Shown piece by piece: positions 2,006-62,879 of a stretch of 64,000 bases of DNA (within the stretch, counting starts at the first letter, position 1; every line of letters begins with the position of its first letter). A program made the position numbers and the translations under genes. The notes beneath the pieces were generated by a model. That model was not told where the DNA came from and ran no database searches. It saw nothing but the letters and a program-made list of their open reading frames with translations. The DNA is from a virus: IMG/VR virus record IMGVR_UViG_3300036715_001865, positions 62,001-126,000 of that record; one strand, given 5' to 3'.

Positions 2006-3070
2006 TTATAATTGAAACCAGATGTCTCCATCGGCTCCACCTGATGGACCATCCCAAGATACCCACACTTGATGTTGTCCGCCCCAACCAGCTGGCATAT
2101 ATGCATGAGAATTCACAAAATCGTAGGTAGCATAATAAGCACCAATGCCACTATTTAAATTGGTAATTGCTGTAGTAATCGCAGCTTCGACCCAACTTTT
2201 GTGTACTAACTGGTTTGGATAGATAGGAGTTCTCCCATCATCAACTATATTACCGGATATGGCTATTATTCCATTACCTGCTACACCAGGAGTTCCTCCT
2301 GATGCAACAATTGCTGAATCGAACATAACAGAGCTTCCACTGGTCCAAAATTCAAAAGCTGCTGATGATGGACCAGTAAACTTACCCATCTGTATTTCGG
2401 GATATTTGGAACTACCTGAACCTTCAATCCACATATTAAGAAAAGCATCATTTGGAGTTGATGTAGTTACTTTTAGTGCACCAGTCATAGTGTCTCCAAC
2501 CTTTTTAACAAATGTGCTATTTGCAGCCGCATCGGCTGCAGCATCTGAAATTGAAGTATCCACGTATCCTTTTGTAGCAGCATCAAGTGGATGTCCGGCT
2601 CTTGGATCTGCGTTAAGAGTAAGATATCCTGTCATGATATCCCCTATCTTCTGTACAAATGTGGAAGCTGTTGATGACCCTAAATAATGTGAATCTGCAT
2701 ATTGTTCTGATATTAGATGTCTCCAACTGTTGAGAGTTGGATCATCACACACGTACATTTCGCTGGTGGTTAAATTAAACCAGGATTGTCCAAGAATTGG
2801 CTTGTTGATACCCAATCCTCCACTAGGAGATAAATCTAATCTTGATTTTGGAGTAGCAGGAGATGCAGTTTTTTCCATAACTGCAAAATTTTCCAATAAC
2901 CTATAAAAGTTTTGGTCAACTTCTTGTCCCCAACCTGTGCGACCATATCCGTAAAAGGTTAAGTCTGCATCTTGTTGGTGTTGTTCGTAGGGTCCTGAAG
3001 CGGACCCTACGTTAATTTGAAAGCGTAAATTGCCTTGAGAATTTATAATTGTATATGATGTAGTTGCCAT
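2006..3070 (-). CDS. Tail fibre protein with phage-fibre repeats
   Basis: A 354-residue virion protein of the long or short tail fibre. Two copies of the phage-fibre repeat are visible (KIGDIMTG... and KVGDTMTG..., the first followed by HPLDAATKGYVD). The N-terminal third has FYGYGRTGWGQEVDQNF, typical of baseplate-attachment regions in distant T4-like phages. Residues ~90-120 hold a short WFNLTT...W module that also recurs in the giant protein encoded at 19913-31264. The gene has a consensus late promoter 27 nt upstream inside a 12-bp inverted repeat. It probably forms one unit with the adhesin gene that follows. Confidence 0.85.
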   Translation of the reverse strand: MATTSYTIINSQGNLRFQINVGSASGPYEQHQQDADLTFYGYGRTGWGQEVDQNFYRLLENFAVMEKTASPATPKSRLDLSPSGGLGINKPILGQSWFNLTTSEMYVCDDPTLNSWRHLISEQYADSHYLGSSTASTFVQKIGDIMTGYLTLNADPRAGHPLDAATKGYVDTSISDAAADAAANSTFVKKVGDTMTGALKVTTSTPNDAFLNMWIEGSGSSKYPEIQMGKFTGPSSAAFEFWTSGSSVMFDSAIVASGGTPGVAGNGIIAISGNIVDDGRTPIYPNQLVHKSWVEAAITTAITNLNSGIGAYYATYDFVNSHAYMPAGWGGQHQVWVSWDGPSGGADGDIWFQL

Positions 3071-3081
3071 TATACTGGTCC

Positions 3082-3119
3082 ATAGTAGTGATTATGTATT
3101 TATACTTAATCACTACTAT
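3082..3119 (-). promoter_or_regulatory. Late promoter (3097-3104) inside a 12-bp inverted repeat before the tail-fibre gene
   Basis: On the minus strand TATAAATA lies at 3104-3097. Arms 3108-3119 and 3082-3093 are perfectly complementary over 12 bp. The inner arm ends against the GGACC ribosome binding site. A transcript started at the late promoter lacks the outer arm; read-through RNA would contain the whole hairpin. Confidence 0.75.
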
Positions 3120-3405
3120 CATCATCATAAGAGGATAGCGCATCACTAACCATCCGTAAGGTTCTACTATCTATATCATGTTTTGTTAACATTCTAAGAT
3201 ACTGAACCAAACTATACCCGTCTGTTTGTAATATGTTTGGATTACGTCCTAAACTAGAAATAGTTTGGATTAGATCGGTTATGAGTGTTTTATCTTGAGG
3301 GGTAGCTGACTGTTTTAGCTTTTTCAAAGATTTTGTAGCATCAACAATCAACCCACCAACTGCATTGTCATCCCCTAACACCATTAATTCATATAATAAC
3401 TTCAC
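3106..3405 (-). CDS. Uncharacterised 99-aa protein upstream of the tail fibre gene
   Basis: A 99-residue, mostly helical acidic protein with an Asp/Ser-rich C-terminal end (SSYDDDSSD). I recognise no family. It starts at GTG preceded by AGGA about 8 nt upstream. A late-promoter variant AATAAATA lies at 3434-3427 on the minus strand, 22 nt before the start, suggesting late expression and a virion or assembly role. It lies between the recombination genes and the fibre genes. Its 3' end overlaps the inverted repeat carrying the fibre-gene promoter. Confidence 0.6.
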   Translation of the reverse strand: MKLLYELMVLGDDNAVGGLIVDATKSLKKLKQSATPQDKTLITDLIQTISSLGRNPNILQTDGYSLVQYLRMLTKHDIDSRTLRMVSDALSSYDDDSSD

Positions 3406-3446
3406 AATAACATCCTAAATAAATAGTATTTATTGTGAATGTGTTG

Positions 3447-6266
3447 TTATGGGATATAAGAGAATCCTTGTTTCATTTGAATAGTTAATGTATTGTCAAA
3501 TATATGACGAGCTTCTTCTCTGTGTGATATGATATATGTTGATAGTTCTTCTTCCTTAGCTCTACGCTTAATTACCTTTGCAGCCGCCTGAATTCCAACA
3601 GCATCTAAACCAACATCTAATACCTCATCTAACATCCAAATATTTACTTTGGTGTGTAATCGTTGTAAAACATCACTAAATGATAAGGACAGTGCTAGAT
3701 TAACTCGAGCCTTTTGTCCAGCTGATAAATTACCAAAATCTAAGGTATTACCAAATTGAGATATATTAGCAGTCATTTCATGTGTAAATTCAACCGTATG
3801 TCGCAATAGCATCTCTGACAAATAGTATTGCAGTCTAGTATTGAGATAAGGAATGTACTTGTTTAAAAGCATTTTCCTTACAAAACTATCCCGTTTTGTC
3901 AATAACTTCAATAACAGTTTTTGGTGCTCTACTTCTTTTGTTAAAATATTTACCTCTGAAAAATCAATTGAGTCTAGCTTGATGTTAATTAATTCATCTA
4001 ATGCCTCGGTGTGAGGGTTGGTACTAGACAATAACGTATCAATATTAGCCTCTATAGCACTACTTTGGTTTTGTATCTTCAACAAGTCTTTAATATTTGG
4101 TGAAGTAAGTTGTGGCTTTAGGTTGTTTTGAATATTTTCAAGAGCTTCAATGGCTGAGTCCACTTCTGAAAGTTCAATCAACAACTGTTCGTTTGTGTTG
4201 GTTAGTGTACTTACAGAGGATGAAAGCTCATTCAATTTAGTTTCCACATCATTATAATCCTGTAAACAATATGGACATTTATGGGATTGAAGCTGTTCAA
4301 GCTCCTTTGTGTATTTTGTTATTTGTGCTTTATTTGATTTAATGGAGTTTTCCAGTTTATCAAATTGGCCAATATCTACCACCAATTGAAGATTAACTTC
4401 TGTTAATTTATCATGGATTTCCTGTTGTTTTTCTAAATCAACACCCTTTATTTTTGATAATTGGGCTTGTAGTTCCGTTATCTTATTTTTGGTTGTATCT
4501 TCCCAATTAGAGATTCTTGTTTTGGTGTTTGTGATTTGGGAATTGTGTCTAATATGCTCTTGTTGGATTAAATCCAGTCTTGTTTTTTTGATTTTTAGAC
4601 TATTCTCAGTGTCCTTAATAAGCTCCTTCAATGCAACAGCTTTATCAGCTAATACAGTTAATCCCACCAGTCGTTCAAACATACCAGCTTGTTCCGCTTT
4701 TGGCAAATCTAAGAATGGATTCAAAGTCGCACTAAACACAACAATACGCACGAATAAGTCATATGATATCCCAATAACTTCTTCGATATACTTATTTGTA
4801 TTTGTAACACTATCTAATGTTTTATCTTCACCATTGATATAAAAATACACATTATTCCCATTTTTTGATTTCCGTTCTCGCTTAATTAAGTACACATCAT
4901 CTCCAATATCAAATTCAACAGATACTTCCATGTTTTTGTTGTTTATATTGTTGACCAATTTATCCTTGGAAATGTTTGAAACAGGTTTGTCAAATAAAGT
5001 GTACACCAATGCATTCAGTATTGTTGTATTGTGAGTAACAATAAAATCATCAGTAATATATAAATGTTCAGGGCTATCAATCATGATACACTGAGTTTCT
5101 TTTTCTCCTAAATATTCAACCATATCAATTCTCAACCCCGAGTTAGCATATTGGGTATGGCCAATAGATAGCTTTTCTAATTTTCTAGGTAATGTAAACA
5201 ATATATGAGGATTAGGTACTTGTATACTTACCTCATATGATAGTTGACCTTCGACTCGTTCAGAGTTTTGATTTTTATAGAACGGCAATCGTTTAGAAAT
5301 TTTTGCAGTTCCTCCGATACTCCTAATTAAATACTGAACATCTTGTGCTAATTGGTTACTAGAACTAGAAAAACTTATATTTTTCGTTTTTCCAACTGTT
5401 CCATCTGTATCCATAAGACCTTGCAATAATTCCAACTTTTGGTCGTAGTTGCTGTTTATCAAGTATTCAGTTGGAATAAACTTTGTGGATGACTTTGTGT
5501 GTAAAATACCCAATTGAGAAAGTTGCCGCCTAATAGATAATAAATTGTGTGACCCTTTTATATTATTAACAAGTATCCAATCATAATTAGGTGATTTTTT
5601 TCCATACTGCACTAAATGTTGTTTATGAGGTAGTAATAATGACTCGATCCTATCGATAGAGTGGGAATCTGCTGAAGTGAATAATATATATCCCCCACTC
5701 ATACAACCATCTCCCAATAAACTACCAAGTAGGTATGGGTGTATCATAAAATCACTTGGTGGTGTAGTTTTATCTGGTTGTATTTTTGGCACAAAAATAC
5801 TGTATCTGGGATTTTTGTTCTTCCACTCCTCTATTAATGGGATTATTTGTTTAGTGGTAAGGGTCCGAGTACCTCTCTTTCCACTCTGGTCCCACCTGTG
5901 AGAAAATACTTCCCACAAGTGATCTTCATCAGCTTCAGTAGTTCTGCCATCAGAAAATGTGATTTTGTATGTTGGTCTAATACCTTGTGGGTAAACTCCT
6001 ATTATGTTAGCTGTTTTACCATTTGGGGTACTGACTATATCTCCAACTTTACATTCCCCTATTGTTGTCCAACCAATTGGAGTTTTTACTTTACAGTGTA
6101 GTGGTTGAGCTTTACCAGTGCCATTGCCTCCCACACCTTCTGTAGTATCATCTAAATTTTCTCCCATTATTAATGTTGTGCCAACATTTGTAAATTCAAC
6201 CACAGTAGTGTTATTACCGTATGATAAAAAATTACGCATTGAAACAGTTTTAAAAGTAATATTCAT
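3447..6266 (-). CDS. 46: Recombination endonuclease subunit gp46 (Rad50/SbcC-like ATPase) containing an intein
   Basis: A 939-residue precursor. Removing the intein (residues 53-413) leaves 578 residues, close to T4 gp46. gp46 is the SMC-like ATPase partner of the gp47 nuclease; together they resect DNA ends for recombination-dependent replication. The Walker A sequence GGNGTGK ends at residue 52 and continues as TTILNAL after the intein. A long coiled coil follows, with the zinc-hook pair CPYC near residue 665. The ABC signature LSAGQKARVNLALS and a Walker B IWMLDEVLDVGLD lie near the C-terminus. Only 3 nt separate it from gene 47 upstream, so the two form one operon. Until the intein is removed the ATP-binding P-loop is interrupted, so splicing is presumably essential. 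Confidence 0.95.
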   Translation of the reverse strand: MNITFKTVSMRNFLSYGNNTTVVEFTNVGTTLIMGENLDDTTEGVGGNGTGKAQPLHCKVKTPIGWTTIGECKVGDIVSTPNGKTANIIGVYPQGIRPTYKITFSDGRTTEADEDHLWEVFSHRWDQSGKRGTRTLTTKQIIPLIEEWKNKNPRYSIFVPKIQPDKTTPPSDFMIHPYLLGSLLGDGCMSGGYILFTSADSHSIDRIESLLLPHKQHLVQYGKKSPNYDWILVNNIKGSHNLLSIRRQLSQLGILHTKSSTKFIPTEYLINSNYDQKLELLQGLMDTDGTVGKTKNISFSSSSNQLAQDVQYLIRSIGGTAKISKRLPFYKNQNSERVEGQLSYEVSIQVPNPHILFTLPRKLEKLSIGHTQYANSGLRIDMVEYLGEKETQCIMIDSPEHLYITDDFIVTHNTTILNALVYTLFDKPVSNISKDKLVNNINNKNMEVSVEFDIGDDVYLIKRERKSKNGNNVYFYINGEDKTLDSVTNTNKYIEEVIGISYDLFVRIVVFSATLNPFLDLPKAEQAGMFERLVGLTVLADKAVALKELIKDTENSLKIKKTRLDLIQQEHIRHNSQITNTKTRISNWEDTTKNKITELQAQLSKIKGVDLEKQQEIHDKLTEVNLQLVVDIGQFDKLENSIKSNKAQITKYTKELEQLQSHKCPYCLQDYNDVETKLNELSSSVSTLTNTNEQLLIELSEVDSAIEALENIQNNLKPQLTSPNIKDLLKIQNQSSAIEANIDTLLSSTNPHTEALDELINIKLDSIDFSEVNILTKEVEHQKLLLKLLTKRDSFVRKMLLNKYIPYLNTRLQYYLSEMLLRHTVEFTHEMTANISQFGNTLDFGNLSAGQKARVNLALSLSFSDVLQRLHTKVNIWMLDEVLDVGLDAVGIQAAAKVIKRRAKEEELSTYIISHREEARHIFDNTLTIQMKQGFSYIP
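5028..6110 (-). mobile_element. Class 3-type intein with LAGLIDADG endonuclease, inserted in the gp46 Walker A motif
   Basis: Residues 53-413 of the precursor (361 aa). It begins with Ala instead of Cys/Ser and ends in Val-Thr-His-Asn before an extein Thr. The Trp-Cys-Thr set that defines class 3 inteins is complete: Trp118 two residues after the block B His (DHLW), Cys393 in block F (QCIMIDS) and Thr411 just before the penultimate His. Dodecapeptide motifs LLGSLLGDG and LLQGLMDTDG mark a LAGLIDADG homing endonuclease between the splicing blocks. Both endonuclease motifs keep an acidic residue, so it may be active. In class 3 inteins the block F Cys makes the first nucleophilic attack. Confidence 0.88.
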
Positions 6267-54075: not shown

Positions 54076-55893
54076 ATGTCGAAGGAACAGACAGTTTTAC
54101 ACGGAATCACAGTTGATTATTCAAGAGATAACAACTATGACATTATCGGGCTTGAACGGTTGCGTGATTCATACATGCAACAAGGTGAAGTAAGTCCACA
54201 AGAACGGTTAGCATACGTTAGTTACAAATTTTCCAGCAACCCCGAACATGCACAACGACTATATGATTATTCAAGCAAATTTTGGTTTGGATATGCGACT
54301 CCCATTTTATCATTTGGTAGAAACGGGTACGGTTTACCCATCTCATGCTTTTTAAATACCGTCACTGATAGTAAAGAAGGATTAGTGGACACCCAATCTG
54401 AAACTAATTGGTTAAGTATGATGGGCGGTGGTGTTGGAGTGTATTGGGGCATCCGTGGCCAAGACGAAAAATCAGTTGGTGTCATCCCCCATATGAAAAT
54501 ATATGACGATTCAACCTTAGCATACAAGCAAGGAACAACTCGTCGTGGCAGCTATGCTATGTATTTAGATATTAGCCACCCAGATATTATTGAATTCTTG
54601 GAGATGCGCAAAGAAACTGGTGACCCTAGAAGAAAGTGTCTTAATTTACACTATGGGGTTAATATCCCAAACACTTTCATGCAAATAATAGAAAACAGCA
54701 TGAAAGACCTCAACTTTGACGACTCGTGGGAACTAAAAGACCCTTCCACAGGAAAGGTTCATGATGTTGTCAGTGCTAGGTATTTATGGGAAAAGGTGTT
54801 AGAACTTCGTGCTGGACAAGGTAGGGGCGAACCATATATTCACTATATCGATAACAGCAACGATGCGCTTGATCCACACTTAAAAGCTCAAGGGTACAAA
54901 ATTAAACAATCAAACCTGTGTTCAGAAATTTTATTACACACAGATGAGTTTAAAACCGCTGTGTGTTGTTTAAGTTCTATCAATTTGGATCATTGGGATG
55001 AATACTGTGATAATTATCAATTCTTCAAAGATATTATGGAGATGTTGGACAACGTATTGCAATATTTTATTGATACTGCCTCACCTCGTATTAGTAGAGC
55101 AGTTCTATCTGCTGTGGAAGAAAGAAGTATTGGGTTAGGAGTAATGGGATTCCATTCTTACTTACAACAAAATGGTATTCCTTTTGATGGCGTGATGGCA
55201 AAAGTTGCAAATCTGCGAATATTCAAACAATTTCAACAAATGAGAGACAGAGCCAATCTTGAACTGGGAGCTGAAAGAGGCTCACCAAAACTGATGGAAG
55301 GTACAGGGAAGCGATTTGCCCACACTTGTGCATTAGCTCCAACTGCAAGTAATGCACTTATTTGTGGTAATGTTAGTGCTAGTGCTGAAATGTGGAGAGC
55401 TAACGCTTTTAGACAAGATACGATGAGTGGAACATTTATTCAAAAGAACACATATTTGGATAAGTTGATACATGAAAAAGTAGCAGCATCTTCTGATAAG
55501 TTGGACTATGATGAAATTTGGATTAATATAGTTCAAGACGAAGGTAGTATCCAAAATATTGATATTTTCACTGAATTGGAAAAAGACATTTTCAAAACTG
55601 CAGCCGAAGCTGATTCTATGTGGGCAGTTGAGCACGTAACAGATAGACAACCTTTTATTGATCAAGGACAGAGCTTTAATATATTCATTAGACCAGATAT
55701 AAGTATCAAAAGGTTGCATGCTATTCACTTTAGTGCTTGGAAGAAAGGAGCAAAGACGATGTATTATGTACGAGCAGAGAAACTTGCAAACACTGAGAAA
55801 GTATCACAACGGATTGAACGCCGAAGAATTGAAGATGATATCGATTTAGTGGCTATCGTAAACGACGAAGAATGTCTTTCTTGTCATGGTTAA
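54076..55893 (+). CDS. nrdA: Ribonucleotide reductase alpha subunit NrdA (class I, no ATP cone)
   Basis: 605 residues. The catalytic set is visible: Cys91 in ISCFLN, Asn280/Cys282/Glu284 in NLCSE, the second redox Cys in VCCLSS (297-298), the radical-transfer Tyr pair in MYYVRAE, and the C-terminal Cys600/Cys603 in ECLSCHG. The protein is shorter than E. coli NrdA (761) because the N-terminal ATP-cone is missing, so dATP shut-off through that domain is not expected. GGAGTTAGGAA precedes the ATG. No intein or intron is present here, unlike in its partner NrdB encoded 63 nt downstream. Confidence 0.96.
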   Translation: MSKEQTVLHGITVDYSRDNNYDIIGLERLRDSYMQQGEVSPQERLAYVSYKFSSNPEHAQRLYDYSSKFWFGYATPILSFGRNGYGLPISCFLNTVTDSKEGLVDTQSETNWLSMMGGGVGVYWGIRGQDEKSVGVIPHMKIYDDSTLAYKQGTTRRGSYAMYLDISHPDIIEFLEMRKETGDPRRKCLNLHYGVNIPNTFMQIIENSMKDLNFDDSWELKDPSTGKVHDVVSARYLWEKVLELRAGQGRGEPYIHYIDNSNDALDPHLKAQGYKIKQSNLCSEILLHTDEFKTAVCCLSSINLDHWDEYCDNYQFFKDIMEMLDNVLQYFIDTASPRISRAVLSAVEERSIGLGVMGFHSYLQQNGIPFDGVMAKVANLRIFKQFQQMRDRANLELGAERGSPKLMEGTGKRFAHTCALAPTASNALICGNVSASAEMWRANAFRQDTMSGTFIQKNTYLDKLIHEKVAASSDKLDYDEIWINIVQDEGSIQNIDIFTELEKDIFKTAAEADSMWAVEHVTDRQPFIDQGQSFNIFIRPDISIKRLHAIHFSAWKKGAKTMYYVRAEKLANTEKVSQRIERRRIEDDIDLVAIVNDEECLSCHG

Positions 55894-55956
55894 ACAATAA
55901 TACACACATAAGATGGTGGACACGATGTCCACCATCACTACCCAAAGGAATAACAA

Positions 55957-57006
55957 ATGACCAAAAAGAAAATTAAATTAACAGACAGTAGAGATGCTTT
56001 TAAACCTTTTCAATACCCTGAATTTTATGATTTGTGGCTTAAACATGAACAAATTCATTGGAGCCATTCTGTTGTGGCAATGCAACAAGATATCAGAGAT
56101 TGGAAAAATGCTCCGGATAACCAGAGAAATTTCTTAACTCAAATTTTGCGATTGTTTACCCAAGGGGACATCGATGTTGCAGGTGCTTATATTGATAATT
56201 ACCTTCCAATCTTCCCACAACCTGAAATTAGAATGATGTTGTTAGGGTTTGCAGCAAGAGAGGCAGTTCACATTGCAGCATATAGTCACCTGATGGAAAG
56301 TTTGGGTTTTGAAGACTCTGTTTACACAGATTTCTTTCAATATCAAGAAATGGCAGCAAAGCATGATTTTTTCAAACAAATTTCTGGAACAGATCATAAC
56401 CAAATCGTTCAACAAATGTGTGCTGTTAGTTCGTTTACTGAAGGTATGCAATTATTCAGCTCATTTGCAATGCTATTAAACTTTGGTCGTAATAATATGT
56501 TTCCTGGTATGACAAAAATTGTTACTTGGAGTATTATTGATGAAAGTTGTTTAATTAAGGATACAGAGGTATTAACCCCTACAGGGTGGAAACCAATTCA
56601 ACACCTTTCACTATCAGACCAGTTGCTACAATTTGACATCAATACTGGAAATACTGAATTTGTACACCCCACTAATCTAACACACACTACTAGAACAGAG
56701 TCATACGTGTTTGAGTCTGATGATATCTACCAACATACAACATCTGATCACAGGATGATAACAAAGAGTGGTGAAAAATTTGTGGATATTACAGCAGATA
56801 TGATAAATGAGGATAATAACCTATTGATAATATCTGGCTCTAAGTTATCAGGAGATGATATATTAACAGATGAGGACAAGGCAACTATTGAATTAATCAT
56901 AACTGCCCAATATCCTGTTCAATGGATTTATGACAAAATTCCATTTGTATCATCTGAATGGGCCCATTCAGCAGTAGAATATTATTTAATGTTGACAACT
57001 CGTTAA
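55957..57006 (+). CDS. nrdB: NrdB N-terminal part fused to an N-terminal intein fragment (split intein IntN)
   Basis: 349 residues. Residues 1-197 are the first part of the class I reductase beta subunit, with diiron ligands in REAVHIAAY (Glu102, His105) and Glu162, ending WSIIDES with Glu196. At Cys198 an intein starts: CLIKDTEVLTPTGWKPI (block A) and IYQHTTSDHRM (block B, Thr...His). It then runs through a degenerate LAGLIDADG-like region to a stop at 57006. The E-x-x-H ligand motif is broken at E-S|C-H, and His is on the downstream gene. Active NrdB therefore needs trans-splicing with the protein encoded at 57910. AAAGGA precedes the ATG. Confidence 0.93.
   Translation: MTKKKIKLTDSRDAFKPFQYPEFYDLWLKHEQIHWSHSVVAMQQDIRDWKNAPDNQRNFLTQILRLFTQGDIDVAGAYIDNYLPIFPQPEIRMMLLGFAAREAVHIAAYSHLMESLGFEDSVYTDFFQYQEMAAKHDFFKQISGTDHNQIVQQMCAVSSFTEGMQLFSSFAMLLNFGRNNMFPGMTKIVTWSIIDESCLIKDTEVLTPTGWKPIQHLSLSDQLLQFDINTGNTEFVHPTNLTHTTRTESYVFESDDIYQHTTSDHRMITKSGEKFVDITADMINEDNNLLIISGSKLSGDDILTDEDKATIELIITAQYPVQWIYDKIPFVSSEWAHSAVEYYLMLTTR
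56548..57006 (+). mobile_element. Split intein, N-terminal half (IntN, 152 aa)
   Basis: Residues 198-349 of the upstream NrdB gene. It begins with Cys1, as in class 1 inteins. The distal part (IPFVSSEWAHSAVEYYLML) matches the region before the second LAGLIDADG motif. In the next reading frame the DNA continues as SLIGVSSSSNINTYTNQV up to about 57054, which aligns in style with the ISFSSSSNQLAQDV stretch of the gp46 intein. A frameshift thus created the stop. Confidence 0.85.
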
Positions 57007-57028
57007 TTGGAGTATCATCGTCCAGTAA

Positions 57029-57036
57029 TATAAATA
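57029..57036 (+). promoter_or_regulatory. Late promoter TATAAATA for the GIY-YIG gene
   Basis: An exact late element 32 nt before the endonuclease start, inside the former intein sequence. Late expression of homing nucleases is known in T4. Confidence 0.7.
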
Positions 57037-57068
57037 CATACACAAACCAAGTTACCACAGGAGAGTGT

Positions 57069-57917
57069 ATGCATTACATAATATACAAGACAACAAATAC
57101 TACTAATGGAAAGATTTATATTGGGTTACACAAACAACTTGCGTTAGATTTTGATGGATATTATGGAAGTGGAACAATATTAAAACGAAGTATTGATAAA
57201 CACGGAATTGATAATTTTAAAAGGGAGACATTGTTTGTGTTTGATACCTTAGCTGAAGTAAGAGCCAAGGAGAAAGAATTGGTAACTGAGGAGTTTTGTA
57301 CCAGGTCAGATAATTATAATATTTCTGTTGGTGGAACAGGAGGTAACACCACAGCAGGTTTAACACCACAACAGAAGATGCTCATAAGCGAAAAAACCAA
57401 ACAGGTAAAATTAGAAAAAGGCTCCAACATTTATAGTGGTGAGAAGTTAAAAAATGCCCAAATTAGAATGAAAAATATACGAATTCAACCTGATAATAGA
57501 GGGTTATGTAGGTCCCAGGAATTAAAGGATAGGTGGTCAACTACCAAAAAAGACAAACACCTAAAGTGGATTACAGATGGTGACACATCTAGGTTGATTC
57601 ACTCAACTGATATCATACCAAATAGTTGGAACATTGGTCGAGATCCTAACTATAAACGGTTTACTGCTCACACACAAGAATCTAAAAATATTATATCTAA
57701 AAAAATTAAAGGAGACAAATGTTATAATAATGGGATAGTCAATTTAAAGTTAAAAGTAGGACAATCACCTCCAGATGGGTTTAAATTAGGTATGATACAA
57801 CACCATCTTCCCAAACATTGGATAACCAATGGTACAATAAATAAAAAACATTTAACCAACACCTCTATACCAACCGGTTGGTATAGAGGTCGAACCATAG
57901 GAAAAAAATATGAATAA
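57069..57917 (+). CDS. GIY-YIG homing endonuclease inserted between the split intein halves
   Basis: 282 residues from ATG 57069, with AGGAGAG upstream. The N-terminal GIY-YIG domain is clear: MHYIIYKTTNTTNGKIYIGLHK, then YYGSGTILKRSIDKHGIDNF and KEKELVTEEF with the metal-binding Glu. The C-terminal half has repeated K-x-W-I-T-D/N-G ... P-x-x-W-x-x-G-R units (around residues 155-190 and 245-275) typical of the DNA-binding part of phage GIY-YIG nucleases. Its stop overlaps the next ATG by 8 nt, so the IntC-NrdB gene is translationally coupled to it. It presumably cleaves intein-less or uninterrupted nrdB alleles. Confidence 0.9.
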   Translation: MHYIIYKTTNTTNGKIYIGLHKQLALDFDGYYGSGTILKRSIDKHGIDNFKRETLFVFDTLAEVRAKEKELVTEEFCTRSDNYNISVGGTGGNTTAGLTPQQKMLISEKTKQVKLEKGSNIYSGEKLKNAQIRMKNIRIQPDNRGLCRSQELKDRWSTTKKDKHLKWITDGDTSRLIHSTDIIPNSWNIGRDPNYKRFTAHTQESKNIISKKIKGDKCYNNGIVNLKLKVGQSPPDGFKLGMIQHHLPKHWITNGTINKKHLTNTSIPTGWYRGRTIGKKYE

Positions 57918-58113
57918 CACAATTTTAGAAGCATTCAATACACTCGCCAATGTAGCAGGTGGTACAATAAAGGACAATCAGCTTATTAAAACCCCTACTA
58001 CTAAATTTAATAAACAACACATTACCCACGAGCCTTTAGAGTTCTATTGTGCTACTGTGCCTGGTACTGCATTTGTAATTAGGTCAAAAGGAAAAATATC
58101 AGTAACTGGTAAT
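57910..58113 (+). mobile_element. Split intein, C-terminal half (IntC, 68 aa)
   Basis: Residues 1-68 of the downstream NrdB gene, ending in Asn at 58111-58113 before an extein Cys. The first ~35 residues are left over from the endonuclease domain; blocks F and G occupy the last ~25. Confidence 0.85.
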
Positions 58114-58515
58114 TGCCACTGTGAAGGTATGACCAAATTATTCAGAACATTCATCAAAGAAAATAGAGAAATTTGGACAGATGAACTAAAAGCACAGTTA
58201 TATGGCATCGCTGAAAAAATGGTCGAATTGGAAGATGGATTTATTAATTTGGCATATGGGGTAATGGACGGAAGTGAGTTTAAACTCCCCCTTTATAAAG
58301 AGGACATGCACAAATATATCAGATATATTGCTGATAGACGACTAATTGCTTTGGGGTTGAAAGGTATCTTCAAACACAAAAAGAATCCTCTGCCTTGGAT
58401 TGACGAAATGTTAGTGTTACCTTCACATAGTAACTTTTTTGAACAAGAAGAGAGCTCCTATAGCAAGGGCGCTCTTACAGGCAACTGGGATGACGTGTGG
58501 GGTACTGTGTCATAA
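57910..58515 (+). CDS. nrdB: C-terminal intein fragment (IntC) fused to the C-terminal part of NrdB
   Basis: 201 residues. Residues 1-68 are the intein C-half: remains of the endonuclease region (ILEAFNTLANVAGGTIKDNQ), block F YCATVPGTAFVIRSKGK and block G ISVTGN with the terminal Asn68, followed by the +1 nucleophile Cys69. Residues 69-201 are NrdB: CHCEGMTKLFRTF contains the His that completes E-x-x-H, and the protein ends WDDVWGTVS, resembling the C-terminal peptide that docks on NrdA. Block G lacks the usual penultimate His (Gly instead), which is seen in some active inteins. The ATG overlaps the GIY-YIG stop. Confidence 0.93.
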   Translation: MNNTILEAFNTLANVAGGTIKDNQLIKTPTTKFNKQHITHEPLEFYCATVPGTAFVIRSKGKISVTGNCHCEGMTKLFRTFIKENREIWTDELKAQLYGIAEKMVELEDGFINLAYGVMDGSEFKLPLYKEDMHKYIRYIADRRLIALGLKGIFKHKKNPLPWIDEMLVLPSHSNFFEQEESSYSKGALTGNWDDVWGTVS

Positions 58516-58580: not shown

Positions 58581-59663
58581 ATGGCTACAAAAACAGAAGC
58601 ATTCATCGGCAAGGCGTCAGCTATTCATCAACACAAATATGATTATACATTAGTTGAGTATATTAACAATTCGACTAATGTGATAATTATATGTCCCATC
58701 CACGGAAGATTTACTCAACGTCCAGGAAACCATTTAAGCGGTGCTCAATGTAAGGAGTGCTCAAAGCTCAATAGAGCCGCTACAAATTTAGAAAAATATG
58801 GCCATCCAAATATTGCTCACGGCACAAAGAAAGATAAAATATCAACTACCAATATCGAGCGGTATGGTGTATCACAATCTGCTGCAAGTTCAAATAACAT
58901 CAAAAAACGAAAACAAACATTGTTGGGTAGATATGGGGTAGATAATCCATCTAAAATCTTACAATTTCAAGAAAAACGAAAACAAACCTTTTTAGATAGA
59001 TATGGAGCTGATAACCCATCTAATGTATTGTTGTTTCAAGAAAAACGAAAGCAAACTTTTTTAGATAGATATGGAGTACCAAGCTCATTTAAACGTTTAG
59101 ATAGCATAGAAAAGAGTCGCAACACTTGTATACAACAATACGGAGTGCCACACCACACCCAACGAAATATTAGTCCAACAATTTTAAATAATATATCTGA
59201 TTTTGATTGGTTATATGACCAATATATCACTCAACAAAAATCAGCTACAAAAATAGCAATCGAGCTAGGGGTGACAACAAAAACAATATGCACTTACCTG
59301 AAGAGACAAGAAATAACATTACGAAGAATGGTTAAATTCTCGTGGATGTGCATTGATTGGTTGGATTCTATAATGGACAAAGATAACATATTAATTGTAC
59401 ATTCTCTCAACAGTGGAGAATACAATATACCAAATACCAAACTACATGTGGACGGGTTTTGTGAAGCAACAAATACTGTGTATGAATTTCACGGGGATTA
59501 TTGGCACGGAAATCCAACTAAGTACCACCCTGATAGACTTAATACTACTACAAATTCCACAATGGGTGAGCTATACAAAAAAACCATTGAACGGGAAGAA
59601 AAAATTCGAGAACTTGGATATGAATTGGTGATTATGTGGGAATCTGATTTTAACAACCACTAA
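58581..59663 (+). CDS. Free-standing homing endonuclease, paralogue of the gene at 37241
   Basis: 360 residues. Same plan as the protein at 37241-38359: N-terminal KYDYTLVEYINNSTNVIIICPIHG with a Cys/His cluster, six or so RYG repeats (three nearly identical, KRKQTFLDRYG), a helix-turn-helix (SATKIAIELGVTTKTICTYLK) and a C-terminal nuclease core TKLHVDGFCEATNTVYEFHGDYWHGNP ending LVIMWESDF. The ATG follows the nrdB terminator T-run with no spacer, and no ribosome binding site is visible, so expression must come from an unusual signal or be very low. A small hairpin terminator follows. Confidence 0.82.
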   Translation: MATKTEAFIGKASAIHQHKYDYTLVEYINNSTNVIIICPIHGRFTQRPGNHLSGAQCKECSKLNRAATNLEKYGHPNIAHGTKKDKISTTNIERYGVSQSAASSNNIKKRKQTLLGRYGVDNPSKILQFQEKRKQTFLDRYGADNPSNVLLFQEKRKQTFLDRYGVPSSFKRLDSIEKSRNTCIQQYGVPHHTQRNISPTILNNISDFDWLYDQYITQQKSATKIAIELGVTTKTICTYLKRQEITLRRMVKFSWMCIDWLDSIMDKDNILIVHSLNSGEYNIPNTKLHVDGFCEATNTVYEFHGDYWHGNPTKYHPDRLNTTTNSTMGELYKKTIEREEKIRELGYELVIMWESDFNNH

Positions 59664-59688: not shown

Positions 59689-60518
59689 ACCCCCTCTTCC
59701 AATAAAAGCCAATATATAACTTGTTGGCTTTTATTGCTCCAGATATCGCTCCACTATATAACCCAAACTGTTTTTTCAATTTCTCCCATAGTATTCCAAA
59801 CTTTAACAAGTTCACCATCTATTGTTAGTTGTTGAACTTGTTTTCCACTCCTTTTAGATGGAGTTAATCTAATATCATTTAACTCTTTTATGTTGATTAA
59901 TTTATTATCTAGTACATCCAAATCACCAACCAATCTCCAATAAAACCTCCAACAGTTTGATACTTATATTTTCTAACTGCTACGCTAATATTTCTCCAAG
60001 ATTTTATCTCCAAATCAATGCCTGCTTGTCTCGACGATTTCCATTCTTTTATAACTTCTCCTGTTATAGCATCTATTTGATAGATTTGTTTATCAGTAGC
60101 GTTTCCACCAGGGTTATTTTCTTTCATCTTTTGTTGATGTTGTTCTGTGTGTTTAGTAGGAATAATTTCTCCTGCTTGGATTAGTGCTTTTCTTGTTTGA
60201 CTTATTCTTTGTTGGAAGGTTCGTTATATTTGTGTTTATATCCTCTTCCCCCTGCCTCTAAATTTAAACACATTTTATCATTTAAGATATCTTCTGTTAG
60301 TATTTGATTTTCAACCAAAAATGCTTCTTCTCTTGTCAGACACATTTGTAGTATTTCCCTGGAAAAACATCTCTACCATATTTTTTGATGTAGTTTAACA
60401 TTTTAATACCAGAACCGAGGTAATTATCAGTTAGAATGTTGGTGGAATGAACCGCAATATAAAAATGTTGGGTTAATATACAAGTTGTTTTGTACACACA
60501 ATGGTATTGTTTAGTCAT
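59687..60518 (-). pseudogene. Decayed GIY-YIG homing endonuclease with NUMOD1-type repeats
   Basis: Reading the minus strand from the ATG at 60518 gives MTKQYHCVYKTTC ... FYIAVHST ... YLGSGIKMLNYIKKYG, a GIY-YIG start. Near 60350 the frame shifts to ILQMCLTREEAFLVENQIL, near 60210 to QRISQTRKALIQAG leading into IYQIDAITGEVIKEWKSSRQ, near 59930 to FYWRLVGDLDVLDNK, and near 59775 to FGLYSGAISGAIKANKL ending at 59689. Joined, they form GIY-YIG plus two NUMOD1-like modules. Neighbouring long genes are intact, so these are probably real mutations. Confidence 0.8.
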
Positions 60519-61512: not shown

Positions 61513-61536
61513 AAAGGGGGCCTAGGCCCCCTTTTT
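61511..61536. terminator. Perfect palindromic bidirectional terminator
   Basis: AAAAAGGGGGCC and its exact complement GGCCCCCTTTTT flank a TA loop, between convergent genes ending at 61512 and 61536. Confidence 0.92.
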
Positions 61537-62879
61537 TAATACTTTCCTTTGGTGTATTTCTGTAGTACTTCATTCAACTCTTGCATGTATATTTCTCGTT
61601 GCCTATCTTTGCTTCCAATGATATTTTCATATTCTAGCTTAAGAGTATTTGCTTCCTCTAATAACCTTAATGTTTTAGTATATTCATCTTTTGTAAATCT
61701 GTACACCGGCAAATCTGCAATATAATCAATATACACCACACCAATTTCTACAAGAAGTTCTTTCAATTCAGACCGAGATTGGGTCTTTTTTGATATCCCT
61801 CCTATGTTATTATCGATAGCAGTAATTATGTCTTTATATTTTTGAATATCTACTTCTAATAGCGATAATAAGCGTAAATATCTGTCTACATAGAATGCCA
61901 ATCTCCATTTTGTAAATCTAGCTAATAAATCTAAAGGCGTTAAATTTAACACCGCTGAATGATTAAAATCTAACACATTAAGATTCTCAATGTGTCGCAC
62001 AGTCAACCCTAATAACAGTAGTAATGATTCATTGGTATGAGTAGCCAAATATCCTTTGTGGAATTTTACAGTAATGTTAACAGTGTCTCGTGAACCATCT
62101 GTATAGTCCACAATATTACCTTTTTCGTATTCACTTTCGAGTTTTGAAATTACTTTTTTGTGAGTTTGTCCATATGGTATCTTGTCAATTAATACTGTGG
62201 TAGCTGTTAATATTTTTACATTCCCACTAAAATAATACGCAATACCTCCATCGGTAATTATAGAATCATGAGCAGTGTTATCTGATGGAGTAAACTCTGG
62301 AAATATTTCATCCAAGTCTTCAACACTCGTCCCTTGTAATATTTTTAATTGAGCTCGGATAATATCTCCCAAGTCTCTAGGTAAAATATTTGTGGCAAAT
62401 CCAACTGCAATACCTTCTGCTGGATTTACCAACGCTAGTGGTACTAGTGGTAGAAAATGTTTTGGTTCTTTTTCTGTACTATCGTAGTTATCCACCATTG
62501 GAACAATTTCAATATCTCGCATTACAACATCTTTAGTGAAAGCAGATAATGTTACAGAGGTATATCTGGATGCACCATAAGCAGTGGCATCCAATAAAGT
62601 TCCAAATGCACCAGTTCCTTTAAATAAAGGTATATTATTACCATACGGTGCAGTAATTGTGTTTATTGAACCATCAGGGGCATCATGTGGATGAATCGGC
62701 AAGGTAGCTCCTGCTAATGTAGCAGATTTCCATTTGTGTCTATCTCTAGCTGTCCATAGCACTCTTCTTGCTCCTGATTTTAATCCATCAGTAATAGATG
62801 GAATTGCTCTCATTTGCATTACAAAGAGTGCATATTCTCTTCGTTGTTGGTTAATATATTCTGAACTTGTCCCTGTCAT
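61536..62879 (-). CDS. 52: DNA topoisomerase II medium subunit gp52
   Basis: 447 residues (T4 gp52 is 442). This is the DNA-cleaving subunit of the phage type II topoisomerase, equivalent to GyrA/ParC. It begins EYINQQRREYALFVMQMRAIPSITDGLKSGARRVLW, the conserved GyrA-like start, and contains YGASRYTSV with the active-site Tyr, then LVPLALVNPAEGIAVGFATNILP. The C-terminal 100 residues form the coiled-coil gate. It follows a phosphoesterase gene, and the ATPase/TOPRIM subunit lies just upstream at the window edge, so the topoisomerase genes are near one another. Confidence 0.95.
   Translation of the reverse strand: MTGTSSEYINQQRREYALFVMQMRAIPSITDGLKSGARRVLWTARDRHKWKSATLAGATLPIHPHDAPDGSINTITAPYGNNIPLFKGTGAFGTLLDATAYGASRYTSVTLSAFTKDVVMRDIEIVPMVDNYDSTEKEPKHFLPLVPLALVNPAEGIAVGFATNILPRDLGDIIRAQLKILQGTSVEDLDEIFPEFTPSDNTAHDSIITDGGIAYYFSGNVKILTATTVLIDKIPYGQTHKKVISKLESEYEKGNIVDYTDGSRDTVNITVKFHKGYLATHTNESLLLLLGLTVRHIENLNVLDFNHSAVLNLTPLDLLARFTKWRLAFYVDRYLRLLSLLEVDIQKYKDIITAIDNNIGGISKKTQSRSELKELLVEIGVVYIDYIADLPVYRFTKDEYTKTLRLLEEANTLKLEYENIIGSKDRQREIYMQELNEVLQKYTKGKY

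What the first reader, a model, noticed from the sequence alone, without database searches (positions are those of the whole stretch)
55957..58515. Fractured nrdB: split intein halves with a free-standing GIY-YIG endonuclease gene between them
NrdB is encoded by two genes. The first ends with an intein N-half (Cys198 start, blocks A and B); the second starts with the C-half (blocks F and G, Asn68, +1 Cys). The break is in the diiron motif E-x-x-H, so neither piece can hold the cofactor alone. A GIY-YIG gene with its own ribosome binding site sits between and overlaps the second gene by 8 nt. Split inteins flanking a nuclease gene are known from metagenomes for gp41, NrdA, NrdJ and IMPDH, with EDxHD-type nucleases. 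I know of no described NrdB case with a GIY-YIG nuclease.
Basis: partly seen in the sequence, partly recalled or inferred. Interest (0 to 1): 0.93.

Follow-up and report, generated by a model that had tools for sequence, protein, structure and literature searches.

The report
Split-intein phage nrdB with GIY-YIG gene
A bacteriophage gene for making DNA building blocks is cut in two by a selfish DNA-cutting gene, and the two protein pieces carry matching halves of a self-removing connector (a split intein) that should stitch them back together; one similar case was already published and tested, so this is a new member of a known kind, with an informative family of relatives.

Summary
A 190-kb phage record carries one nrdB, split into two ORFs: NrdB 1-197 plus intein N-half (Cys198 on), and intein C-half (68 aa, ends Asn68) plus the NrdB C-terminus. 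A GIY-YIG gene lies between and overlaps the second ORF by 8 nt. The break separates Glu196 from the His of the second diiron E-x-x-H pair. No other nrdB or nrdD was found in the record. The novelty claim fails: the AceL NrdHF intein (Hoffmann 2020, PDB 6ZGQ) is a fractured RNR-beta gene with an intervening GIY-YIG gene. Its halves trans-splice in vitro, and the window intein is its homologue (E=4e-24). New here: Cys1/Cys+1 instead of Ala1/Ser+1; insertion shifted by one codon (ES|CH versus E|SMH); longer halves; and a graded set of relatives (contiguous intein, split without nuclease, split with nuclease). In a relative whose RNR-beta N-part is only 27% identical, the intein N-half is about 43% and the GIY-YIG 51% identical, which indicates horizontal movement as a unit. 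Most likely mechanism: trans-splicing restores NrdB and the GIY-YIG gene is the homing nuclease. Splicing and cleavage are inferred.

The parts
54076..55893 (+). nrdA, class I RNR alpha, uninterrupted
   Evidence: NF006577 673.9 bits, above its cut-off 620
55944..55949 (+). Shine-Dalgarno AAAGGA of nrdB-N
   Evidence: sequence
55957..56547 (+). nrdB N-extein, residues 1-197 (D71, E102, H105, E162, E196; radical Tyr109)
   Evidence: PF00268 E=2.1e-40; alignment with solved R2 proteins
56548..57003 (+). intein N-half, 152 aa, Cys1; T65 H68 R69 M70
   Evidence: profile match to 6ZGQ E=3.9e-24; alignment A1
56848..57003 (+). helical tail of the N-half beyond the minimal splicing domain, possible endonuclease-domain remnant
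   Evidence: absent from AceL NrdHF and L220; helices in the L090 model; remnant idea not confirmed
57059..57065 (+). Shine-Dalgarno AGGAGAG of the GIY-YIG gene
   Evidence: sequence
57069..57917 (+). GIY-YIG homing-endonuclease-like gene, 282 aa, SegE-like
   Evidence: PF19835 26.6 bits (cut-off 25), TIGR01453 E=1.4e-8, phrog_314 E=1.9e-32; conserved catalytic motifs
57899..57902 (+). Shine-Dalgarno AGGA of nrdB-C, inside the GIY-YIG 3' end
   Evidence: sequence
57910..57917 (+). 8-nt overlap of the GIY-YIG stop and the nrdB-C start
57910..58113 (+). intein C-half, 68 aa: block F Cys47, Thr66, Gly67, Asn68
   Evidence: alignment A2; second stretch of the match to 6ZGQ
58114..58512 (+). nrdB C-extein, begins C-H (+1 Cys, then the sixth diiron ligand)
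   Evidence: PF00268 E=4.5e-17
58581..59663 (+). second free-standing homing nuclease gene (DUF7487 family), directly downstream of nrdB-C
   Evidence: PF24308 E=1.2e-23, phrog_3339 homing endonuclease E=4e-18

Best explanation
The phage's only detected nrdB is a fractured gene. Two polypeptides are made, NrdB(1-197)-IntN and IntC-NrdB(198-330). The halves associate into a HINT domain of the AceL NrdHF type, excise themselves, and ligate S197 to C198, rebuilding the E196-x-x-H199 diiron pair and a 330-aa beta subunit that partners the intact NrdA. The GIY-YIG gene in the break is a free-standing homing endonuclease gene, related to phage Seg-type nucleases. It probably spreads the whole IntN-GIY-IntC cassette into uninterrupted nrdB alleles by cutting at or near the active-site codons. 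nrdB-C starts inside the 3' end of the nuclease ORF, so its translation is likely coupled to that ORF. Shown: architecture, homology to a splicing-tested intein, HINT fold predicted for the contiguous homologue, intact motifs, relatives with and without nuclease, much lower divergence of the cassette than of the exteins across distant RNR-beta genes. Inferred: splicing of this pair, nuclease activity and target, coupling.
For: IntN/IntC profile hits 6ZGQ at 3.9e-24 and 8.4e-32, and that intein trans-splices. The contiguous homologue L090 (581-aa nrdB with a 226-aa intein) folds as a HINT domain, pLDDT 88.9, top PDB match 6ZGQ E=1.7e-10. Uninterrupted relatives run straight through the site. 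The same layout occurs in L085/L086 and L170 (complete), L220 (complete, minimal halves), and L167 and L174 (contigs end before the C-half). After splicing, L085 and L170 would give DETMH, the commonest intein-free sequence (34 of 85 distinct). L167: N-extein 27% identical to the window, intein N-half 43% and GIY 51%, whereas L085 has 59%, 43% and 53%. N-extein separation between the two RNR lineages is about 5 changes per column, against about 0.15 for the central branch of the intein+GIY tree. L085 versus L170: dN well below saturated dS in GIY and both intein halves. GIY stop overlaps the nrdB-C start in all four complete members. One nrdA, no second nrdB, no nrdD in the record.
Against: No splicing or cleavage was measured. 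The record may be incomplete, so an unseen second reductase is possible. GIY matches general PF01541 below its cut-off (16.1 versus 22.6 bits), and its model is poor beyond residue ~80. Intein+GIY tree topology alone (L167 with L220) does not contradict the extein tree; the transfer argument rests on relative divergence. L167 and L174 contigs end before the C-half.
Confidence: 0.85

Rival explanations
1. The two pieces work as a non-covalent gene-in-pieces enzyme, as reported for the mobE-split NrdA of Aeromonas phage Aeh1, and the intein halves no longer splice.
For: Precedent for a split RNR subunit that keeps activity without ligation (Aeh1 NrdA, as cited in PMC7344957).
Against: All intein catalytic positions are intact and both halves are conserved at 49-56% in L085; dN is well below dS in the related pair L085/L170. 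Unspliced tails of 152 and 68 aa would sit in the diiron site.
Confidence: 0.06
2. Same trans-splicing, but the GIY-YIG gene is only a hitch-hiker whose target is the contiguous intein gene (HEG-only homing into the intein), so the intein and nuclease do not move as a unit. This competes only with the homing part of the best explanation.
For: A contiguous intein with no nuclease exists (L090) with its linker at the split position; GIY relatives also occur as free-standing genes elsewhere, for example downstream of an intact nrdB in L009.
Against: Intein and GIY together are much less diverged than the exteins between RNR lineages (L167). Contiguous inteins are rare compared with intein-free nrdB in the hits seen, which would make a poor target.
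Confidence: 0.3
3. Pseudogene or frameshift/assembly artefact: nrdB is dead or really continuous.
For: The nuclease-free split in L084 could be a one-base frameshift of a contiguous intein; that is one contig only.
Against: For the window: identical in a second assembly over 11 kb; an 849-bp foreign ORF with its own RBS; the same layout in five other lineages; conserved ligands and radical Tyr.
Confidence: 0.03

Closest known systems
AceL NrdHF split class 3 intein (Ace Lake phage-like contig; PMC7891396; PDB 6ZGQ)
   Same: RNR beta gene in fractured organisation; intervening GIY-YIG putative homing nuclease; homologous HINT domain (E=3.9e-24); M70/Cys/Thr triplet, H68, R69, TGN ending without the usual block F and G histidines; insertion in the same E-x-x-H codons.
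   Different: AceL has Ala1 and +1 Ser and is proven class 3; the window has Cys1 and +1 Cys. Site shifted one codon (E|SMH versus ES|CH). AceL halves are 98 + 48 aa, the window's 152 + 68 aa.
Fractured genes with split inteins and EDxHD-type nucleases (gp41, NrdA, NrdJ, IMPDH; Dassa 2009, not readable here, known from citations and general knowledge)
   Same: Host gene broken inside a split intein with a free-standing nuclease gene between the halves.
   Different: GIY-YIG instead of the EDxHD-type nuclease; NrdB/NrdF site.
Aeromonas phage Aeh1 nrdA / mobE gene-in-pieces (cited in PMC7344957)
   Same: Phage RNR subunit gene split by a homing nuclease gene.
   Different: HNH nuclease and no intein; there the pieces associate without ligation.
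Segregated GIY-YIG nucleases of T4-like phages (Seg family)
   Same: PF19835 SegE GIY-YIG domain and phrog_314; best isolate hits are annotated Seg-like homing endonucleases.
   Different: About 31% identity over the whole length in the best isolates listed; those are annotated as free-standing genes, not between intein halves.

Membership tests
Fractured gene with split intein | One gene encoded as two adjacent ORFs whose junction falls inside an intein | tested here: met
   PF00268 split at 194/188 and intein halves on both sides
Fractured gene with split intein | Free-standing homing endonuclease gene between the halves | tested here: met
   SegE/GIY-YIG ORF with its own RBS
Fractured gene with split intein | Trans-splicing restores the host protein | not testable with these tools
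   Only inferred from motifs and from the tested homologue AceL NrdHF
AceL NrdHF intein family | Homologous splicing domain | tested here: met
   6ZGQ E=3.9e-24 and 8.4e-32 by profile; fold match E=1.7e-10 for the contiguous homologue L090
AceL NrdHF intein family | RNR beta host gene with a GIY-YIG gene at the break | tested here: met
Class 3 intein | No nucleophile at position 1 | tested here: not met
   Window has Cys1; Ala1 occurs in L085, L086 and L170
Class 3 intein | Cys at block F position 4 and Thr at block G position 5 with W (M in AceL) at block B position 12 | tested here: met
   M70, Cys47, Thr66, i.e. the AceL-type M-C-T triplet rather than W-C-T
Class 1 intein | Cys/Ser at position 1, TxxH, terminal Asn, +1 Cys/Ser/Thr | tested here: met
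   Cys1, T65-S-D-H68, Asn68, +1 Cys
Class 1 intein | Splicing starts with the position-1 nucleophile | not testable with these tools
   needs C1A and Cys47A mutants
GIY-YIG (SegE) nuclease | Conserved GIY..YIG, Glu and Asn motifs over the curated score | tested here: met
   PF19835 26.6 over 25 (PF01541 itself below cut-off); Y3, Y6, Y17, E53, E68, E70 and N84 invariant in A3
GIY-YIG (SegE) nuclease | Site-specific DNA cleavage and homing | not testable with these tools
   needs biochemistry
LAGLIDADG intein ancestor | Helical tails at the split are remnants of a LAGLIDADG domain | tested here: inconclusive
   helix-helix-hairpin in the model at the right place but profile comparison only P=0.16

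The most novel reading that the evidence does not exclude
The NrdB/NrdF split-intein plus GIY-YIG cassette is a two-component mobile element that has moved between RNR-beta genes only about 27% identical. It has changed splicing start chemistry (Ala1 class 3, Ser1, Cys1) and slid its insertion point by one codon. In the Cys1 members it carries both a class 1 nucleophile and the complete AceL-type class 3 M-C-T triplet, so either nucleophile could start splicing.
Probability: 0.4. Interest if true: 0.68.

Novelty: new member of a known kind. Interest (0 to 1): 0.5.

Why it matters
It turns a single published metagenomic case (AceL NrdHF) into a family with a contiguous form, a split nuclease-free form and several split nuclease-bearing forms at almost the same active-site codons, one of them in a 190-kb phage record. 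That makes two open questions testable: how fractured genes arise (nuclease insertion into a contiguous intein, or the reverse, re-fusion) and how inteins switch between class 1 and class 3 start chemistry. Cys1/Cys+1 split pairs with M-C-T triplets are also candidate ligation tools.

Tried and rejected
Group I intron as the cause of the break: no Rfam match in the window, and the nuclease stop overlaps the second ORF, leaving no room for an intron 3' end. Isolate phages: no nrdB of this kind found among 50,697 phage records. Bacterial and archaeal genomes: 60 pattern hits, none a relative. LAGLIDADG remnant: only suggestive. Within-population sweep of the cassette: an apparent excess of N-extein variation in L085-like contigs is explained by presence or absence of another GIY gene upstream in L086/L165 with a diverged flank, so not used. 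A tree-topology proof of horizontal transfer failed (L167 pairs with L220 in both trees); only relative divergence supports it. The GIY structure model was too poor to use (pLDDT 59).

Full report
OBSERVATION. The window holds nrdA (54076-55893) followed by nrdB-N (55957-57006, 349 aa), a 282-aa GIY-YIG ORF (57069-57917) and nrdB-C (57910-58515, 201 aa). The two nrdB ORFs match adjacent parts of the same small-chain profile (PF00268 4-194 and 188-281). Spliced together they align end to end with solved R2 proteins, best 9DWS E=2e-79. The presumed diiron ligands are D71, E102, H105, E162, E196 and the His two residues into the C-extein; Tyr109 sits where the radical Tyr lies (ligand roles from the established R2 family). 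The N-piece keeps five of six ligands. The same 11,047 bases occur without a mismatch in a separate IMG/VR contig (L003).

THE INTEIN. N-half residues 1-152 and C-half residues 1-68 align with four related loci. A profile of the N-halves finds PDB 6ZGQ, the AceL NrdHF intein, at E=3.9e-24, and a profile of halves plus contiguous forms finds it at 8.4e-32 on both sides. Key residues fall on the AceL numbering: T65 (AceL S65), H68, R69, M70; then block F Cys47, Thr66, Gly67, Asn68. The contiguous homologue in L090 (581-aa ORF) was modelled with pLDDT 88.9 and matches 6ZGQ best (Foldseek E=1.7e-10), followed by many HINT domains.

RELATIVES. Same layout, complete: L085/L086 and several near-identical contigs (intein N-half 49%, GIY 53.5%, C-half 54-56%), L170, and L220 (minimal halves). 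Same layout but contig ends before the C-half: L167, L174. Split with no nuclease: L084, whose second ORF can start at an ATGA overlap behind GGAGG; this could be a frameshift and rests on one contig. Contiguous: L090 and the 139-aa mini-intein of L192-L194. Intein-free nrdB is far commoner among the loci fetched. The first residue is Cys in window, L084, L090, L167, L192 and L220, Ala in L085/L086/L170, and Ser in L174. The insertion point is E|xxH in L085, L170, L174, L220 and AceL, and Ex|xH in window, L084, L090, L167 and L192 (for L167 and L174 judged from the N side only). For L085/L170 the spliced product would read DETMH, the commonest intein-free sequence (34 of 85 distinct). None of the 85 intein-free sequences has Cys before the His, so the +1 Cys of the window type probably came with or after the intein.

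MOBILITY. L167's N-extein is 53% identical to L220's but 27% to the window's, while its intein N-half (43%) and GIY (51%) are as close to the window as those of L085 (43%, 53%), whose extein is 59% identical. The exteins of the two RNR groups are separated by a branch of about 5 changes per column; the central branch of the intein+GIY tree is about 0.15. Since inteins here otherwise diverge faster than their exteins (window versus L084: extein 70%, intein 44%), the cassette has most likely moved between distant RNR-beta genes. Topology alone does not prove it.

NUCLEASE. The GIY protein passes PF19835 (SegE, 26.6 over 25 bits), is below cut-off for PF01541, and matches TIGR01453 and phrog_314 (homing endonuclease, 1.9e-32). 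Residues of the two GIY/YIG strands, the glutamates and N84 are invariant in six relatives. L085 versus L170 gives dN 0.41 with near-saturated dS 4.8 for GIY, so the ORF looks to be under purifying selection. In the four complete members the GIY stop overlaps the nrdB-C start (window 8 nt, L085 11 nt, L170 and L220 read from the sequence) with a Shine-Dalgarno inside the nuclease gene. Coupled translation, which would penalise loss of the nuclease frame, is an inference.

PRIOR ART. The window differs by Cys1/Cys+1, the one-codon shift and longer halves. Other-gene inteins fetched here (L195-L208) mostly also combine Cys1 with block F Cys and Thr, so the combination itself is not unique.

SELECTION CONTEXT. 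The record holds one NrdA, no other NrdB match and no NrdD, so trans-splicing would be needed for a phage reductase if the record is complete, which is not established.

VERDICT.

Noticed in passing
L261 / L264, about 2300-4922: Another GIY-YIG gene between split-intein halves, here in the terminase large subunit, with a very short N-half (about 45 aa) and a long C-half (atypical split).
   Followed up: partly
L086 142-1239: The same phage that has the fractured nrdB also has nrdA whose C-part starts with an intein C-half (...NNILVHN|CSEIILP), so both RNR subunits appear to be split-intein genes.
   Followed up: no
L086 1970-2620 versus L085, L168, L169: A further 216-aa GIY-YIG gene between nrdA and nrdB is present in some near-identical contigs and absent in others; the first ~270 bp of nrdB is diverged next to it, as expected of a co-conversion tract.
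   Followed up: partly
window 58581-59663 and G000 elsewhere: The phage record carries many DUF7487 (PF24308) homing-nuclease-like genes: 10 match stretches in the record, one gene directly downstream of nrdB-C.
   Followed up: partly
window 61536-62879 (-): Phage-encoded DNA gyrase/topoisomerase IV subunit A (PF00521).
   Followed up: no
window 59754-60127 (-): Short ORFs that look like NUMOD-type homing-nuclease DNA-binding modules, possible remnant of another nuclease gene; judged by eye only.
   Followed up: no
L192-L194: A contiguous 139-aa mini-intein at the same E-x-x-H codons in a more distant nrdB, without nuclease.
   Followed up: partly
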